Shown one piece after another: positions 4,272-52,472 of a DNA stretch of 52,472 nucleotides; positions within the stretch are counted from its first letter, which is position 1, and each line of letters begins with the position of its first letter. The notes under the pieces were generated by a model. The model worked only from the letters and a program-made list of their open reading frames with translations. It searched no databases and was not told the origin of the DNA. The DNA comes from Candidatus Persebacteraceae bacterium Df01 (GTDB lineage: Bacteria > Pseudomonadota > Gammaproteobacteria > Tethybacterales > Persebacteraceae), in contig JANQAO010000002.1 of assembly GCA_030386295.1 (NCBI GenBank), forward strand, positions 250,868 through 303,339, given 5' to 3'. The translations under genes and the position numbers were made by a program.

Positions 4272-5090
4272 TCAATCTAAAATCCCGTCCAATGCACAAC
4301 GTGCTTTGAATGCCATCAGAAATGGCTTAATGCAAGCAATTTCCTCTTCTTCGGCGGACAAGGAAATTGCCTTCAAAGAATCAACTACAACGATAATGTC
4401 ATCACGCACTGTCGCGCTAAGACGCAACAGTAGCGTCTGCAAAAACGGTTGACGTTCAGGCAACGCCACATTGATGTGTTGTTGTGCCATGTCTAACAAC
4501 GGCAAAATGTTAGCAATTTCATTAGCGGCGATGGCTTTTTCCGCTTCCTCCAAATAATTGAATATCGGCGACGCGCCAACAAGATGACGCGCCCGCTTCC
4601 AATCAATCCCAGAAACAAAATCGCCCTGAGGTCGGATAGTGTCGGTTTTTGAAGAAGGTGTAGAAATATGGTGCTGGGAGTTGGACGAACTGGTGGCAAT
4701 TTGTGATTTGTGAGTTAGCGCAATGGTGGAATTTTGGGGTGATGTCTGCGAAAAAAGCTGCTGCACAATCGCTGTTACCAATTCTTGTAACGTGACATCA
4801 TCAGCCGCAGTATTCCATTCCAATATATTAAAATCTGGCCATTTTTCTGCGGCTCGCCGGCGCAAGGCAGACAAATAAGAAAAATGCGACGGCACCTGTG
4901 CAACAATTGGAAAGTTATTACCTTTTGCTAATTCAACCGCTGCTTCTATGTCTGATACGACATATGTAGTGAGCAATACAGCTATTCCCGCCGATGGCAC
5001 AATTGTCGCCATTTGCGCAGCGGGTAACAGAGCTGCCAGCTGGCGCGCGTCCAAATCTTCACGCACAGAAATAACGCTAATTGTTTTCAT
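4272..5090 (-). CDS. Unrecognised 272-aa protein
   Basis: I do not recognise this protein. Residues 1 to about 115 look like an alpha/beta domain with alternating hydrophobic strands (TISVISV, IAVLLTTYVV, FPIVAQV). Residues about 117-155 form a Ser/Thr/Gln-rich linker likely to be disordered. Residues about 165-272 look all-helical, with AEKAIAANE and EEEEIACIKPFLMAFKARCALDG. There is no signal peptide, transmembrane segment or P-loop. It lies between trpD and a divergent metal permease, with about 60 bp to trpD, so it could be read through into trpDC. The coding signal (codon use like its neighbours, 272 codons without a stop) is convincing; function is unknown. Confidence 0.75.
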   Translation of the reverse strand: MKTISVISVREDLDARQLAALLPAAQMATIVPSAGIAVLLTTYVVSDIEAAVELAKGNNFPIVAQVPSHFSYLSALRRRAAEKWPDFNILEWNTAADDVTLQELVTAIVQQLFSQTSPQNSTIALTHKSQIATSSSNSQHHISTPSSKTDTIRPQGDFVSGIDWKRARHLVGASPIFNYLEEAEKAIAANEIANILPLLDMAQQHINVALPERQPFLQTLLLRLSATVRDDIIVVVDSLKAISLSAEEEEIACIKPFLMAFKARCALDGILD

Positions 5091-5165
5091 TGTCGAATTT
5101 ATCTATTGAAAAATAAAAATTGCCGTGTGCATCAAACGACATCGTACAACCACGATTGCTTGAAT

Positions 5166-5171
5166 TATAAT
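5166..5171 (+). promoter_or_regulatory. Consensus -10 box 8 nt before the permease start
   Basis: A perfect TATAAT is followed by AAGAATTA and ATG 5180. No Shine-Dalgarno lies between them, so the mRNA probably begins at or within a base or two of the ATG. No clear -35 is visible. Confidence 0.45.
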
Positions 5172-5179
5172 AAGAATTA

Positions 5180-6331
5180 ATGAACACAGTTGTTATCAAA
5201 CGCGGCTTACACAATATTGTTGACAATCTTGCCTTGGGCAAAATCGTTGCTCTAGTCGCTAGTGTTCTTCTTATCCTTTATCCAGCCACCCGAGATATCG
5301 CGTTCACGGCATTGAGCGAATCTTATTATCAAGTAAGCATCTTTGTCGCTGCTACGCTTATTGGATTGATTATGTTTGAGCGTGCCCAAAAGCGCGAAAT
5401 GCGGGAAATTTTGCGCCGCCATGCGCGCTGGCAAGTTCCCATTGCCGCTATTTTTGGTGCTATTCCCGGTTGCGGCGGTGCCATTTTTGTGGTCACCCAA
5501 TACATTCGCGGCGCCATGAGTTTTGGTGGCGTAGTAGCTACGCTTACCGCCACTATGGGAGATGCCGCCTTTTTGTTACTCGCCAAAACGCCGCTGGTAG
5601 CAATAAAAATATTCGCTATTTGTTTTGTCATGGGATTGGTTTTTGGTTTTATAGTAGACCGTATTCATGGTCGTGATTTTTTACGCCCTGATACTAAAAA
5701 TGTAGACGTTGACTCCGATATTGAGGAAAACCCACTATTGTCGCCATTTTACCTTTTGTGGATGGTACTGTTTGTCCCCGGTGCAATTATTGGCATTTCC
5801 TACGCTTTTCAGGTTGATGTCGCTAAAGTCTCACAAATTGGCGGAGTAGATTGGGTTAGTCCTTTTGGCGCCGCCGCGGCACTATTTGCTATTGTTATGT
5901 GGACACTTAATCCACTATCCGACATTCGCCTGTGTATTTCAGAGCGACGCACTATGACAAGACGGGTTACCGATACCACCAACTTTATTACCTTTTGGGT
6001 GCTGTGTGGTTTTTTCGGCTATGGGGTACTAGAAAGTTACTTCCATCTTAATTTAGCAGGATTACTGCAATCTTGGGTTTGGCTAACGCCGCTGGTAGCG
6101 GTAATTATCGGCTTTATTCCCGGCTGTGGTCCGCAAGTAGTAGTCGCCACTTTGTTTGTAAACGGTGTAATTCCGCTGTCGGCACAACTAGCCAATGCCA
6201 TTTCCAACGACGGTGATGCACTGTTTCCCGCCGTCGCTATTGCTCCCAAAGCCTCCGTCATTGCCACACTGTACACTGCAATACCGGCTTTGATTGCCGG
6301 ATATGGTTGGATGTTTTTGTTTGAGCGTTGA
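5180..6331 (+). CDS. Putative 10-TM metal/metalloid permease (ArsP_2 / putative manganese transporter family)
   Basis: This is a 383-aa inner-membrane protein with about ten hydrophobic segments. It holds two copies of one motif: IPGCGG...MGDAAFLLLAKTP around residues 95-140 and IPGCGP...DGDALFPAVAIAP around residues 315-355. Each copy has an IPGCG turn and then a GDA helix, as expected of an internally duplicated transporter. From memory this pattern belongs to the ArsP_2 family (putative heavy-metal exporters, often named putative manganese transporter). Cys in both IPGCG motifs and the paired Asp residues are plausible metal ligands. The substrate is not known from sequence. It is a single gene, divergent from the unknown gene at 4272 and followed by tRNA-Val. 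Confidence 0.75.
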   Translation: MNTVVIKRGLHNIVDNLALGKIVALVASVLLILYPATRDIAFTALSESYYQVSIFVAATLIGLIMFERAQKREMREILRRHARWQVPIAAIFGAIPGCGGAIFVVTQYIRGAMSFGGVVATLTATMGDAAFLLLAKTPLVAIKIFAICFVMGLVFGFIVDRIHGRDFLRPDTKNVDVDSDIEENPLLSPFYLLWMVLFVPGAIIGISYAFQVDVAKVSQIGGVDWVSPFGAAAALFAIVMWTLNPLSDIRLCISERRTMTRRVTDTTNFITFWVLCGFFGYGVLESYFHLNLAGLLQSWVWLTPLVAVIIGFIPGCGPQVVVATLFVNGVIPLSAQLANAISNDGDALFPAVAIAPKASVIATLYTAIPALIAGYGWMFLFER

Positions 6332-47853: not shown

Positions 47854-49251
47854 TCAGCAATCTACAATATTAATCGGCACTTCCAATACATGCGTAGCCA
47901 AACCGCCACGCGCTGTTTCTTTGTATTTATCTTTCATATCCCGACCGGTCTCGCGCATAGTCTTAATAACCTTATCCAATGAAACAAAGTGCTCACCATC
48001 ACCTGCCAATGCCAAACGAACGACATTAATCGCCTTATTAGCACCTACTGCATTGCGCTCAATGCAGGGGATTTGTACCAAACCGCCAATAGGATCGCAA
48101 GTGAGTCCGAGATTGTGCTCCATGGCGATTTCAGCGGCATTTTCTACCTGCATCGGCGTACCTCCGCTAACTTCGGCCAAGCCTGCAGCTGCCATAGCAC
48201 AGGCCGATCCGACTTCACCCTGACAGCCAACTTCGGCACCACTGATAGAAGCATTTTCCTTGCACAAAGAGCCTACCGCAGCGGCAGCCAGCAAAAAACG
48301 TACCACACCGTCATCAGTCGGTGAATCGGTGTGGCGAGTGTAATAATGCAACACTGCTGGAATAATACCGGCAGCACCGTTGGTAGGCGCAGTTACCACC
48401 CGCCCGCCGGCGGCATTTTCTTCGTTAACCGCAATAGCGTACAAATTCACCCAATCAATAACTTTAAGCGGGCTATCATCTTTGCTATCACACAATCGCT
48501 GATGCAATCCTGCCGCTCGCCGTTTGACTTCCAACCCACCCGGCAACACACCTTCTTCTCGACAGCCTCGCTCCACACAAGCTTGCATAACCTCCCAAAT
48601 TTCCAGTAATCGGCTACGTACTGTGGATTCGGGAAGCTGTTGTTTTTCATTTTCCATCACCACATCGCTGATAGAAATATTATTTTTTTGGCAAATAGCC
48701 AGCAATTCTGTTCCACTAGAAAACGGATAAGGAACAGCAGTCGCCGCCACCGCAATCACTGGATTATCGTTAGCCGCCGCATTTTCATCAATAACGAAGC
48801 CGCCACCAATAGAATAATATGAAGAAGCTCGCAATTCGTTACCAGTGGCATCATAAGCCCGAAAAATCATGCCATTGGGGTGGTGTGGTAATGATTTACG
48901 CTTGTGCATAAGCAAGTCTTCCCGCTCATAATATGGCACTTCATGACGCCCTAACAGCCGCAACCGCTGACCTTCACGAATGGCGACCAAACGGGCGGGA
49001 ATGGTTTCTACCTCTATGCCCGCTGGTGTATCACCTTCCAACCCTAGCAAAACCGCTTTAGTAGAGCCGTGACTGCGTCCGGTTACGCCCAGTGATCCGT
49101 ACATTTCTGCCCGCACTCGTGCCGTTTGCGATAGCAACCCATCATCTGCCAGAGATTGAGAAAATCGCCGCCCAGCAACCATCGGACCGACTGTATGCGA
49201 ACTGGACGGCCCAATACCAATTTTAAATAATTCAAAAACGCTAACTGTCAT
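47854..49251 (-). CDS. sdaA: L-serine dehydratase (single-chain, Fe-S type)
   Basis: The 465-aa enzyme deaminates serine to pyruvate. The N-terminal beta domain has [24 protein letters not shown] (7-30). The alpha domain has [33 protein letters not shown] and [18 protein letters not shown], whose Cys residues hold the catalytic 4Fe-4S cluster. A TACACT extended -10 ends 7 nt before the start and there is no Shine-Dalgarno. A 63-bp exact copy of its 5' region (49166-49228) recurs at 51198-51260, where it is fused to a cysteine desulfurase remnant. Confidence 0.95.
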
Positions 49252-49258
49252 AACAGTT

Positions 49259-49264
49259 AGTGTA
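49259..49264 (-). promoter_or_regulatory. Candidate extended -10 of sdaA
   Basis: On the minus strand TGTTACACT (extended -10) is followed by AACTGTT and ATG 49251, giving a leaderless layout. A weak TTGCTT (revcomp 49280-49285) could act as -35 at 15 bp. The site lies inside the 67 bp missing from the duplicated copy near 51260. Confidence 0.4.
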
Positions 49265-49295
49265 ACAAATTATTTTTATAAGCAATATTTCTAAC

Positions 49296-49411
49296 CCTTG
49301 CTAATCCTTGTATTTTGATTAAAAAAAAGAAGGCGCATAAGCGCCCTCTTTTAGGGGAGGTAAAAGAAGATTAGAAGTCGTGACGCAAACCAATGTTGAC
49401 ATAGTCATCAG
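49296..49411. repeat. 116-bp direct repeat, copy 1 (porin 3' end and terminator)
   Basis: Bases 49296-49411 are identical by eye to 51261-51376. They cover the porin 3' end, its terminator and the following spacer. This is one side of the tandem porin duplication. Confidence 0.85.
49321..49349 (-). terminator. Intrinsic terminator of porin copy 1
   Basis: On the minus strand AGAGGGCGC pairs with GCGCCTTCT (one G-T wobble) over a TTAT loop, followed by eight T. It lies 22 bp after the porin stop. Confidence 0.9.
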
Positions 49412-50561
49412 CATCAGCATCTGTGTCTAAATCTTGGCTAGCATACTCAATCCAAACTCTGGACTTGGAGCCCAAATTGTATTGAACACCAACTGTTCCA
49501 TAGTGATCTTTAGCACCATCTGCACCTTCAGCATTTTCCAATGAATCGTACACCGCATAGAGATTGACTTTGTCAACCGCTACACCAGCAGCAATGGAAA
49601 ACAACTGGGGGTCACTAGCAGCCTGAACAACTTCTGTTTCTACGCCATCTGTGGTTGACTTATATTCATATGTAACGTCGCTATAGTTGGTTTCACCATA
49701 CCAGCTGGTAACGTACCAATTATCTTGCTCATAAGCAAGGCGGAGCGCCCAACTATCAACATCATTATTCAGGCCTCTCTCAACCTGCGCACTATGAGTA
49801 GTGTCATCATCTGCTTCTGCTATAGCAGCAACCTGATCTATAAGCGCCCGAATCGGCGAGTTGTCATTATCGGGATCACTTAATAATACGTTAGTGTAAT
49901 CCGCACGAGTGTTGTAAGTACCAGCAACAGTAAAGCCTGAAATACTGTAGCTACCGGCTAATGCCCAGTAATCTACTGCATTTTCACCGTTTGCAACGGT
50001 GTTCTCATCGGCGTCGTATCGATCGTCGTTTACCATGCTAGCAATCACAGCACCTTGAAAACCATTTAAGTTAGGGGTTGTATATTGTACGGAACGGCTA
50101 ATACGACCGGGGAAAACATGTGAACCAACGAGGAGGCTAGCACTTTGTTTATTAGCAACGTCAGTGCTGCCATAAACCATGTTGTATGGAGCTGCCCAAA
50201 AGCTACCGGCGCGTACTTCACCAAAATTACCGCGTAATCCGACATGCAATTGACGAGTTTCAAGGCTGCCACCATTTTCGGCATCCATACCTGCTTCATA
50301 AGCATAAAAACCGACTAAACCATTGCCTAAATCATTAGAACCGCGTACACCAAAACGGCTACCCGAATTCTGAATCTCTGCACTATGCTTACTCGCTGCA
50401 CTCTCGCCATCCTTTTCACCGGAATTCCAGCGCACTCGTAGTGAAGCCCAAAAACCTTCAGATGCTGATGTGTATTGCATACCGGAAGTGTCTTGAGCCG
50501 CAAACGCATTTGGGGCGACCATGGCACTGGCGATAGCAAGAGCAATTGCTTTCTTTTTCAT
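49371..50561 (-). CDS. Outer-membrane porin, copy 1
   Basis: The 396-aa protein has a Sec signal peptide (MKKKAIALAIASAMVAPNAFA|AQD) after an AAGGAG ribosome site that fixes ATG 50561. The mature part is a gram-negative porin of the 16-strand type: alternating strands, the SRFGVRGSNDLGNGLVGFYAYEAG and RQLHVGLRGNFGEVRAGSFWAAPYNMV region before the constriction loop, and a C-terminal strand ending YVNIGLRHDF with the terminal Phe needed for BAM assembly. Long acidic insertions mark the outer loops. Copy 2 at 51336 is nearly identical in strands but differs in loops. Confidence 0.93.
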   Translation of the reverse strand: MKKKAIALAIASAMVAPNAFAAQDTSGMQYTSASEGFWASLRVRWNSGEKDGESAASKHSAEIQNSGSRFGVRGSNDLGNGLVGFYAYEAGMDAENGGSLETRQLHVGLRGNFGEVRAGSFWAAPYNMVYGSTDVANKQSASLLVGSHVFPGRISRSVQYTTPNLNGFQGAVIASMVNDDRYDADENTVANGENAVDYWALAGSYSISGFTVAGTYNTRADYTNVLLSDPDNDNSPIRALIDQVAAIAEADDDTTHSAQVERGLNNDVDSWALRLAYEQDNWYVTSWYGETNYSDVTYEYKSTTDGVETEVVQAASDPQLFSIAAGVAVDKVNLYAVYDSLENAEGADGAKDHYGTVGVQYNLGSKSRVWIEYASQDLDTDADADDYVNIGLRHDF

Positions 50562-50743: not shown

Positions 50744-51259
50744 TCAATCCCCACACACCGACGACATCGCACCCAACTGCTGCCGCAAAGATACTGCCGC
50801 CGAAACAAATCGCGCTATATTTTCAGCACTAGTCGCGGCACCTAACGACACCCGTACTGCAGTACGAGCAGTATCTAACGGTGTCCCCATCGCCAGCAAC
50901 ACATGACTGGGCTCTTCTTTCATACTAGAGCAAGCAGCGCCACTAGCGACAGCAAAACCGGATTGATCTAGCATCACCACCATACTTTCGCCTTCTATAC
51001 TGGGAAAACCAAACAATGACGTATTGGATAGCCGCTCGGCCTCTCCGCCAAATATCAACGCCCCTTCCTGCCGCAAAACAGCTTCCATCTCATCACGCAA
51101 AGTGCCAAGTCGCTCTGCTTCTGTTTTTTGCTGTGCCACTGCCAGCTCGCATGCCGCACCCATGCCTACGATGCCCGCCACATTTTCAGTAGAAGAACGC
51201 CGCCCAGCAACCATCGGACCGACTGTATGCGAACTGGACGGCCCAATACCAATTTTAAA
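50744..51259 (-). pseudogene. Chimeric remnant: sdaA 5' piece fused in frame to a cysteine desulfurase C-terminus
   Basis: From 51259 the minus strand reads [21 protein letters not shown] of serine dehydratase, then continues in the same frame as RSSTENVAGIVGMGAACELA, the C-terminal part of an IscS/NifS cysteine desulfurase. That part includes the catalytic Cys loop ASGAACSS and the usual C-terminal helices. The PLP-binding Lys half of the desulfurase is absent, so it cannot be active. The sdaA start codon is also lost, and TAG stands just upstream, two codons before FKI. ATG 51214 could start a 156-aa product. The junction is at GRR, a sequence common to both proteins (GGGCGGCG). It lies between the two porin copies. 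Confidence 0.85.
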
Positions 51260-51376
51260 TCCTTGCTAATCCTTGTATTTTGATTAAAAAAAAGAAGGCG
51301 CATAAGCGCCCTCTTTTAGGGGAGGTAAAAGAAGATTAGAAGTCGTGACGCAAACCAATGTTGACATAGTCATCAG
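51198..51376. repeat. Copy 2 of the sdaA-5' / porin-3' direct repeats with a 67-bp deletion
   Basis: Bases 51198-51260 equal 49166-49228 (63 bp) and 51261-51376 equal 49296-49411 (116 bp). The 67 bp between them in copy 1 (49229-49295), which hold the sdaA start codon and promoter, are missing here. Identity was judged by eye. Confidence 0.85.
51286..51314 (-). terminator. Intrinsic terminator of porin copy 2
   Basis: An exact copy of the terminator at 49321-49349, with the same 9-bp stem, TTAT loop and eight T. It lies 22 bp after the stop of the second porin. Confidence 0.9.
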
Positions 51377-52472
51377 TATACATCTCTGTGCCTGCCTTTT
51401 GGCCAACATACTCAGCCCAAATTCTGGACTTGGAGGTAAAATTGTATTGAACACCAACTGTTCCAAAGTTATCTTTAGCACTATATGCACCTTGAGCGTT
51501 GTCTACTGAATCGTACACCACATAGAAATCGACGTTGTCAACCGCTATACCAGCAGCAAAGGAAAACAATTTGGGGTCACTAGGAATATTAACAACTCTT
51601 GTAGTTACGCCGTCTTTGGTTGAATCAAATATATATGAAACGCCGCTATAGTCGATTTCACCATACCAGCTGGTAACGTACCAATTATCTTGCTCATAAG
51701 CAAGGCGAATCGCCCAACTATCAACATCATTATACCGGCACTCCACACACCAAAAGCTATCATTCTCAACCCCTTCCCCTTCTGGATGAGCACCGCCAGC
51801 ATGTCTTACAAACTCATCAAGCGGCTCGTCTTCGTGCATTAATGTGTCACCGTAATCCGCACGAGTGTTGTAAGTACCAGCAACAGTAAAGCCTGAAATA
51901 CTGTAGCTACCGGCTAATGCCCAGTAATCTATTGTATTTTTAGCGTTTGTTCTGGTGCTTACGCCGGGTGGCCCGTCGTTTATCATGCTAGCAACCACAG
52001 CACCTTGAAAACCATTTAAGTCAGGGGTTGTATATTGTACGGAACGGCTAATAATACCGGGTAAAAGATTTGGAAAACCACCTACAGGTGCAAAAACAAT
52101 CGCACCACTTTGTCTATTAGCAACGTCAGTGCTGCCATAAACCATGTTGAATGGAGCTGTCCAAAAGCTACCGGCGCGTACTTCACCAAAAGCACCGCGT
52201 AACCCGACATGCAATTGACGAGTTTCAAGCTCGAGACCAGTTCTGGCAAACATACCTACTTCATAAGCATAAAAGCCGACTAAACCATTGCCTAAATCAT
52301 TAGAACCGCGTGCACCAAAACGGCTACTAGAACCGTATATACGATAAGGGCCATGCGAACTCTTAATCTCTATATCACTGTCACTTCTTTCGCCGGAATT
52401 GAAGTGCACTCGTAGTGAAGCCCAAAAACCTTCAGACGCTGATGTGTATTGCATACCGGAAGTGTCTTGAGC
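51336..52472 (-). CDS. Outer-membrane porin, copy 2, 5' end outside the window
   Basis: The frame is open at 52472, where it reads AQDTSG directly before MQYTSASEGFWASLRV, so only the signal peptide is missing; 378 residues are visible. Strands, the SRFGARGSNDLGNGLVGFYAYE region and the C-terminus YVNIGLRHDF match copy 1. The predicted outer loops differ strongly, for instance after NTRADY and after NSGE. One loop has WCVECRY with two Cys, rare in porins and able to form a disulfide. It ends in the same terminator sequence as copy 1. Confidence 0.92.
   Translation of the reverse strand, partial: AQDTSGMQYTSASEGFWASLRVHFNSGERSDSDIEIKSSHGPYRIYGSSSRFGARGSNDLGNGLVGFYAYEVGMFARTGLELETRQLHVGLRGAFGEVRAGSFWTAPFNMVYGSTDVANRQSGAIVFAPVGGFPNLLPGIISRSVQYTTPDLNGFQGAVVASMINDGPPGVSTRTNAKNTIDYWALAGSYSISGFTVAGTYNTRADYGDTLMHEDEPLDEFVRHAGGAHPEGEGVENDSFWCVECRYNDVDSWAIRLAYEQDNWYVTSWYGEIDYSGVSYIFDSTKDGVTTRVVNIPSDPKLFSFAAGIAVDNVDFYVVYDSVDNAQGAYSAKDNFGTVGVQYNFTSKSRIWAEYVGQKAGTEMYTDDYVNIGLRHDF

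What the first reader, a model, noticed from the sequence alone, without database searches (positions are those of the whole stretch)
50744..51335. Chimeric sdaA/cysteine desulfurase remnant between duplicated porins
An in-frame fusion joins the N-terminus of serine dehydratase to the C-terminal third of a cysteine desulfurase at a shared GRR codon run. Exact copies of sdaA 5' DNA (63 bp) and porin 3' DNA (116 bp) recur, less 67 bp. This records a recent tandem duplication or illegitimate recombination at microhomology, and it may have made a new expressed 156-aa protein.
Basis: seen in the sequence. Interest (0 to 1): 0.55.

Follow-up and report, generated by a model that had tools for sequence, protein, structure and literature searches.

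The report
Scar of a tandem porin duplication
The odd fused gene is most likely the silent seam left when a bacterium copied a stretch carrying an outer-membrane pore gene side by side; the seam itself is ordinary, but the two pore genes have since become unusually different.

Summary
Exact copies of 63 bp (sdaA 5') and 116 bp (porin 3' end plus terminator) recur, minus 67 bp. This is what a short-junction tandem duplication leaves: [desulfurase 3' end - porin - terminator - sdaA 5' end] copied head to tail. The model predicts a complete desulfurase upstream of the second porin. The window ends at a contig end inside that porin, and another contig begins with the first 196 residues of a desulfurase of the same type; the rest would fall in an assembly gap. 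That fits but does not prove it. A new expressed protein is not supported: the sdaA start codon is deleted, a terminator stands just upstream, and the PLP-binding part is missing. More notable are the porins: 66% amino-acid identity, 70 replacement versus 9 silent single-base codon differences, whole-gene dN/dS about 1.8, while 138 flanking non-coding or dead bases are identical. A chimera of the same layout, made at an 8-bp repeat, is published for Staphylococcus aureus sigH.

The parts
47854..49251 (-). sdaA, intact L-serine ammonia-lyase (465 aa)
   Evidence: TIGR00720 688 bits, over its cut-off of 345; ORF
49166..49228 (-). sdaA 5' codons present in both copies (63 bp exact)
49229..49295 (-). 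67 bp absent from the copy; holds the sdaA start codon (49249-49251) and DNA upstream of it
49296..49411 (-). porin1 3' end plus downstream non-coding DNA, the 116 bp that recur exactly
49325..49352 (-). terminator-like site after porin1 (12-pair stem, T-run)
   Evidence: fold z -4.5 for the surrounding 86 nt
49371..50561 (-). porin1, 396 aa from ATG at 50561, with AAGGAG upstream and a signal-peptide-like N-terminus (peptide judged by eye)
   Evidence: Porin_4 1e-29; anti-SD energy -8.3
50744..51197 (-). C-terminal part of a NifS/IscS-type cysteine desulfurase, open to its stop codon
51198..51205 (-). join: GGGCGGCG, Gly-Arg-Arg codons of sdaA and (by protein, in relatives G001 and G002) of the desulfurase
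51198..51260 (-). sdaA 5' remnant in the copy, without start codon
51261..51376 (-). exact copy of porin 3' end plus non-coding DNA
51290..51317 (-). copy of the terminator-like site, just upstream of the chimeric frame
51336..52472 (-). porin2, 378 codons to the contig end; 66% aa identity to porin1

Best explanation
The chimeric frame is the novel join of a head-to-tail (short-junction) tandem duplication. The unit ran, in the direction of transcription, from about codon 233 of a NifS/IscS-type cysteine desulfurase (position judged from relatives), through a porin with its own upstream region and terminator, into codon 29 of sdaA. A replication or repair error joined sdaA to the desulfurase where both encode Gly-Arg-Arg. 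Result: full desulfurase - porin2 - terminator - sdaA' | 'desulfurase - porin1 - terminator - full sdaA. What was gained is a second porin unit; the chimera is a by-product. If the order was duplication then deletion, the join began as an in-frame fusion under sdaA's own start and was silenced when 67 bp with that start were lost. The porins then diverged, mostly by amino-acid-changing differences, or a divergent allele was brought in by recombination. Shown: the join, exact repeats, missing 67 bp, terminator-like site, excess of replacement differences. Inferred: the intact desulfurase in the gap, the order of events, the silence of the chimera, selection as the cause.
For: Copies in the same orientation, 1950-2032 bp apart. 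The join links the 5' end of the gene downstream of the porin to the 3' end of the gene upstream of it, as a tandem duplication requires. Of 9 class-V matches in G000, one is an N-terminal fragment of 196 residues cut by the left end of C1, and one is the chimera; C2 ends inside porin2; the other 7 are full-length genes or weak partial matches in other long frames, none of them the missing piece. N-terminal fragment and chimera both hit NifS/IscS models and align with successive parts of the same relatives' genes at 61-62% and 56-58% to G002 and G001. The region upstream of porin1 has no second assembled copy; only the last 59 bases of the contig, porin coding, match that query. Silence: sdaA start lost; terminator-like stem ends about 75 nt before the first in-frame start at 51214. 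Published chimera of the same layout with an 8-bp repeat (PMC3486894, passages).
Against: The stretch joining C1 and C2 is not assembled, so the intact desulfurase and the microhomology are not seen. No relative with the undivided order desulfurase-porin-sdaA was found: in G001 the three genes lie on three contigs, G002 has no porin match, and its desulfurase is followed by convergent frames. C1 stops about 36 codons before the join, not at the repeat border, so the repeat alone does not explain that break. In more distant relatives (G003, G004) the site reads GLR, not GRR. Porin divergence (dS 0.155 by one method) sits badly with 0 changes in 138 flanking bases unless selection, recombination or gene conversion acted. 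The desulfurase part of the chimera shows no decay (57 of 65 invariant residues kept), which also fits constraint.
Confidence: 0.78

Rival explanations
1. The block porin2 - terminator - sdaA 5' was inserted into the desulfurase gene and split it, so the genome has only one C-terminus of this desulfurase (in the chimera) and a truncated N-terminus.
For: Exactly one N-terminal fragment and one C-terminal fragment are visible in the assembly.
Against: Needs two junctions instead of one, and it would be a coincidence that the insertion hit the gene directly upstream of porin1, in the same orientation and order (inference).
Confidence: 0.1
2. Assembly or library artefact: two strains' porin alleles and a chimeric molecule were joined at the repeats.
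For: Porin2 and the contig end coincide; the porins differ as alleles of two strains might. Reads could not be examined.
Against: The join rests on about 8 shared bases, too short for the overlaps assemblers use (general knowledge), and the 67-bp deletion has no matching bases at its ends (read); both need real molecules. G000 is listed as 98.31% complete with 0.03% contamination.
Confidence: 0.1
3. The chimera is expressed as a working 156-aa protein, for example a stand-alone small domain carrying the desulfurase cysteine loop.
For: Open frame; no excess loss of conserved residues (57 of 65 kept; leave-one-out controls 57/65, 57/64, 57/69). Anti-SD energy at its ATG (-2.4) lies within the range of 10 other window starts (-8.3 to +1.5, starts taken mechanically from ORFs), and sdaA itself has none (+1.5).
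Against: sdaA start and upstream DNA deleted; terminator-like site just upstream; no promoter-like site on that strand between 51290 and 51214 (a weak scan: 2 sites in the region, 3.8 expected from shuffles); lacks the PLP-lysine part. The single-sequence structure model is uninformative (pLDDT 46.7).
Confidence: 0.04

Closest known systems
Short-junction tandem duplication at Staphylococcus aureus sigH (nusG'-'sigH, rplK'-'sigH; PMC3486894, passages read)
   Same: Short head-to-tail unit (1210 bp in one clone), 8-bp direct repeat at its ends, in-frame fusion of a downstream gene's 5' codons to an upstream gene's 3' part, intact copies left on the outside.
   Different: [quoted passage not shown] here that start is deleted, the copies have diverged, and the fusion is probably silent.
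Spontaneous duplications with short junction repeats in Salmonella (PMC3411829, abstract and passages read)
   Same: Confirmed duplications had short direct repeats at their endpoints.
   Different: The paper's deduced cut-off for verified duplications was 11 bp or more; here about 8 bp are visible on the sdaA side. Those are events in culture, this one is in an assembled genome.
PorB-type porins with variable, recombining loops (PMC10327514, abstract and passages read)
   Same: Both porins hit Pfam porin families and, far below cut-off (50.5 and 38.0 against 480 bits), NCBIfam PorB; differences are clustered.
   Different: Loop location was not shown here (structure model failed); here the two variants sit in tandem in one genome.

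Membership tests
Short-junction tandem duplication | Two head-to-tail copies of one segment | tested here: met
   Direct repeats D1-D6, same strand, spacing 1950-2032
Short-junction tandem duplication | Novel join linking the downstream end of the unit to its upstream end | tested here: met
   sdaA 5' to desulfurase 3'
Short-junction tandem duplication | Short direct repeat at both endpoints | tested here: inconclusive
   GRR in sdaA and in the desulfurases of G001 and G002 (GLR in G003 and G004), but the intact desulfurase DNA of G000 at this point is not assembled
Short-junction tandem duplication | Intact copies of both fused genes on the outside | tested here: inconclusive
   sdaA intact; the desulfurase is seen only to residue 196 at the end of C1
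Short-junction tandem duplication | RecA independence | not testable with these tools
   needs genetics
Cysteine desulfurase (NifS/IscS type) | PLP-binding lysine and N-terminal part | tested here: not met
   The chimera begins after the SGHK/SAHK segment of its relatives (its role is recalled); NifS score 133 bits against a cut-off of 530.75
Cysteine desulfurase (NifS/IscS type) | C-terminal cysteine loop | tested here: met
   SGAACSSM aligned with SGAACASM of G002 and SGAACSSM of G001; the catalytic role of this cysteine is recalled knowledge

The most novel reading that the evidence does not exclude
The duplication locks two divergent porin alleles in tandem: either a heteroallelic join between strains or very rapid selection after copying. 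The locus would then be a snapshot of a surface protein escaping the one-allele limit, with a seam (the dead sdaA-desulfurase fusion) that gives a neutral clock next to selected genes.
Probability: 0.3. Interest if true: 0.5.

Novelty: new member of a known kind. Interest (0 to 1): 0.3.

Why it matters
The join of a short tandem duplication is easiest to see in selected laboratory clones. Here one appears kept in a small genome, next to paralogues with more replacement than silent change. The dead join offers a built-in neutral reference for the age of the copies, so selection on a duplicated surface protein could be tested directly once reads or sister strains are available.

Tried and rejected
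A diversity-generating retroelement as source of the porin changes: no reverse transcriptase in G000 (PF00078: 0 of 1 genome; the control rang in 3 of 14), and the differences include all six base-pair types, 71 of 214 being A/G.

Close relatives with the undivided order: the genome-contig scan with SdaA kept 80 loci at 59-68% identity; their neighbourhoods were not examined, as none is close. Of 37 genomes searched (G000 included; 40 asked for), 27 had a chimera match, 8 a porin match and 17 an SdaA match. Gene neighbours were read only in G001 and G002 (desulfurase and sdaA, and the porin of G001) and, for the desulfurase alone, G003 and G004, by eye. No undivided order was seen. G001's desulfurase is divergent from a glyQ-like frame, as on C1 (named by eye).

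Plasmid searches: no DNA match; by protein, 225 records, all under 60% identity; of the 5 listed, 3 are annotated NifS, 1 a class-V enzyme, 1 nothing. No sign of recent import from a plasmid.

Structure: chimera pLDDT 46.7 and porin pLDDT 27.5, both unusable; no fold search was made. Mapping the porin differences to loops was therefore not possible.

dN/dS: 2 of 20 fits stopped near omega 1 (the starting value); refitting with three starts gave 1.71 and 2.38 for those two settings. One search also split the gene into conserved blocks (213 codons, omega 1.46, 2 delta lnL 0.8, not different from 1) and variable blocks (156 codons, omega 3.2); the split selects on replacement changes and is circular, so it is not used as evidence, but it means the excess comes from the variable blocks.

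The 10 listings of the porin-duplication search were not used.

Full report
What is there. All genes concerned lie on the minus strand. In the direction of transcription: porin2 (cut by the end of the window), a terminator-like site, a 63-bp remnant of the sdaA 5' region without its start, the C-terminal part of a cysteine desulfurase to its own stop, porin1 with its own ribosome site, an identical terminator-like site, and intact sdaA. The exact repeats are 63 bp and 116 bp; between them the original has 67 bp that the copy lacks, including the sdaA ATG. The deletion shows no matching bases at its ends (read).

What the join is. The chimera reads MVAGRR-SSTENV. SdaA has MVAGRRF; the desulfurases of the two family relatives have GRRSGTENV, those of two order relatives GLRS. 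So the frames meet at Gly-Arg-Arg codons; sdaA and chimera agree through GGGCGGCG. The join puts the 5' part of the gene downstream of the porin onto the 3' part of the gene upstream of it. A tandem duplication of [desulfurase 3' - porin - sdaA 5'] gives exactly that, and predicts a complete desulfurase upstream of porin2.

Testing the prediction. The window is the right end of contig C2 of a 1.53-Mb, five-contig genome. Of 9 class-V matches in G000, one is a NifS/IscS-type N-terminus of 196 residues cut by the left end of C1, starting divergently from a frame that looks like glycyl-tRNA synthetase alpha (by eye); one is the chimera; the other 7 are full-length genes or weak partial matches inside other long frames. 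The segment between them, about 36 codons by alignment with relatives, is not in the assembly as a fragment. A query from porin1's 5' end and upstream DNA finds, besides itself, only the last 59 bases of the contig. This is what an unassembled stretch between C1 and C2 would give. It is a consistent but not a completed test: adjacency of C1 and C2 is not shown, and C1 ends before the repeat border, which the repeat alone does not explain.

Is the chimera a gene? The desulfurase part has kept 57 of 65 residues invariant in G001-G003, about as many as each relative does in turn (57/65, 57/64, 57/69); the N-terminal fragment on C1 keeps 74 of 80. So no decay is visible; a young duplicate would look the same. 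Against expression: sdaA's start and upstream DNA are deleted, a 12-pair stem with a T-run ends about 75 nt before the first in-frame start, and the PLP-lysine part is missing. Weak ribosome-site pairing is not decisive, since sdaA itself shows none. The promoter scan is uninformative (2 sites against 3.8 in shuffles).

The porins. A search with porin1 finds only these two in G000 (E up to 10). Over 369 aligned codons, 232 are identical; single-base differences change the amino acid in 70 codons and are silent in 9, where about 26% silent is expected at a transition bias of 2 (binomial p 0.001). A pairwise codon model gives omega 1.82 (2 delta lnL 7.85), and 1.7 to 3.5 across two alignments and four gap masks (eight fits). 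Replacements are clustered (0 of 2000 permutations as uneven); in conserved blocks alone omega does not differ from 1. Meanwhile 63 bp of dead sdaA and 75 bp of non-coding DNA are unchanged. At 3.7% divergence (9 silent differences over 244.5 silent sites) the chance of no change in 138 bases is 0.006; for the 63 dead bases alone it is 0.09; at 15.5% the chance for 138 is 8e-11. So the porins have probably diverged more than their flanks: selection for change, import of another allele, or conversion of the flanks. These were not separated, and the terminator may be constrained. A porin of G001, 47% identical in its best segment, used as outgroup leaves 22 sites derived in porin2 and 10 in porin1, with 50 sites all different and 160 gapped columns.

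Comparison with the known. PMC3486894 (passages) describes short-junction tandem duplications in S. aureus that fuse codon 50 of nusG to codon 7 of sigH in frame at an 8-bp repeat, with intact genes on either side. The layout here is the same. PMC3411829 (abstract and passages) reports duplications as common in growing Salmonella. PMC11111574 (passages) uses 9-bp repeats to make them on purpose. So the scar is a member of a known kind; its persistence and the porin divergence are the unusual parts.

Noticed in passing
49371-50561 and 51336-52472: Tandem porins with more replacement than silent differences (70:9 single-base codons; omega about 1.8) beside unchanged flanks.
   Followed up: partly
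49241-49260: The sdaA start codon lies in the loop of a perfect 8-bp inverted repeat; the sdaA starts of G001 and G002, read by eye, lack it. It is part of the 67 bp lost in the copy.
   Followed up: partly
L140 (G016:C22:1738-3126) and L143 (G020:C7:20557-21909): SdaA matches in two same-class genomes each contain one in-frame TGA: pseudogene, error or recoding not examined.
   Followed up: no
L054 (G001:C15) 4526-5971: The family relative's porin frame also ends close to a contig end (239 bases away); porin repeats may break assemblies in this family.
   Followed up: no
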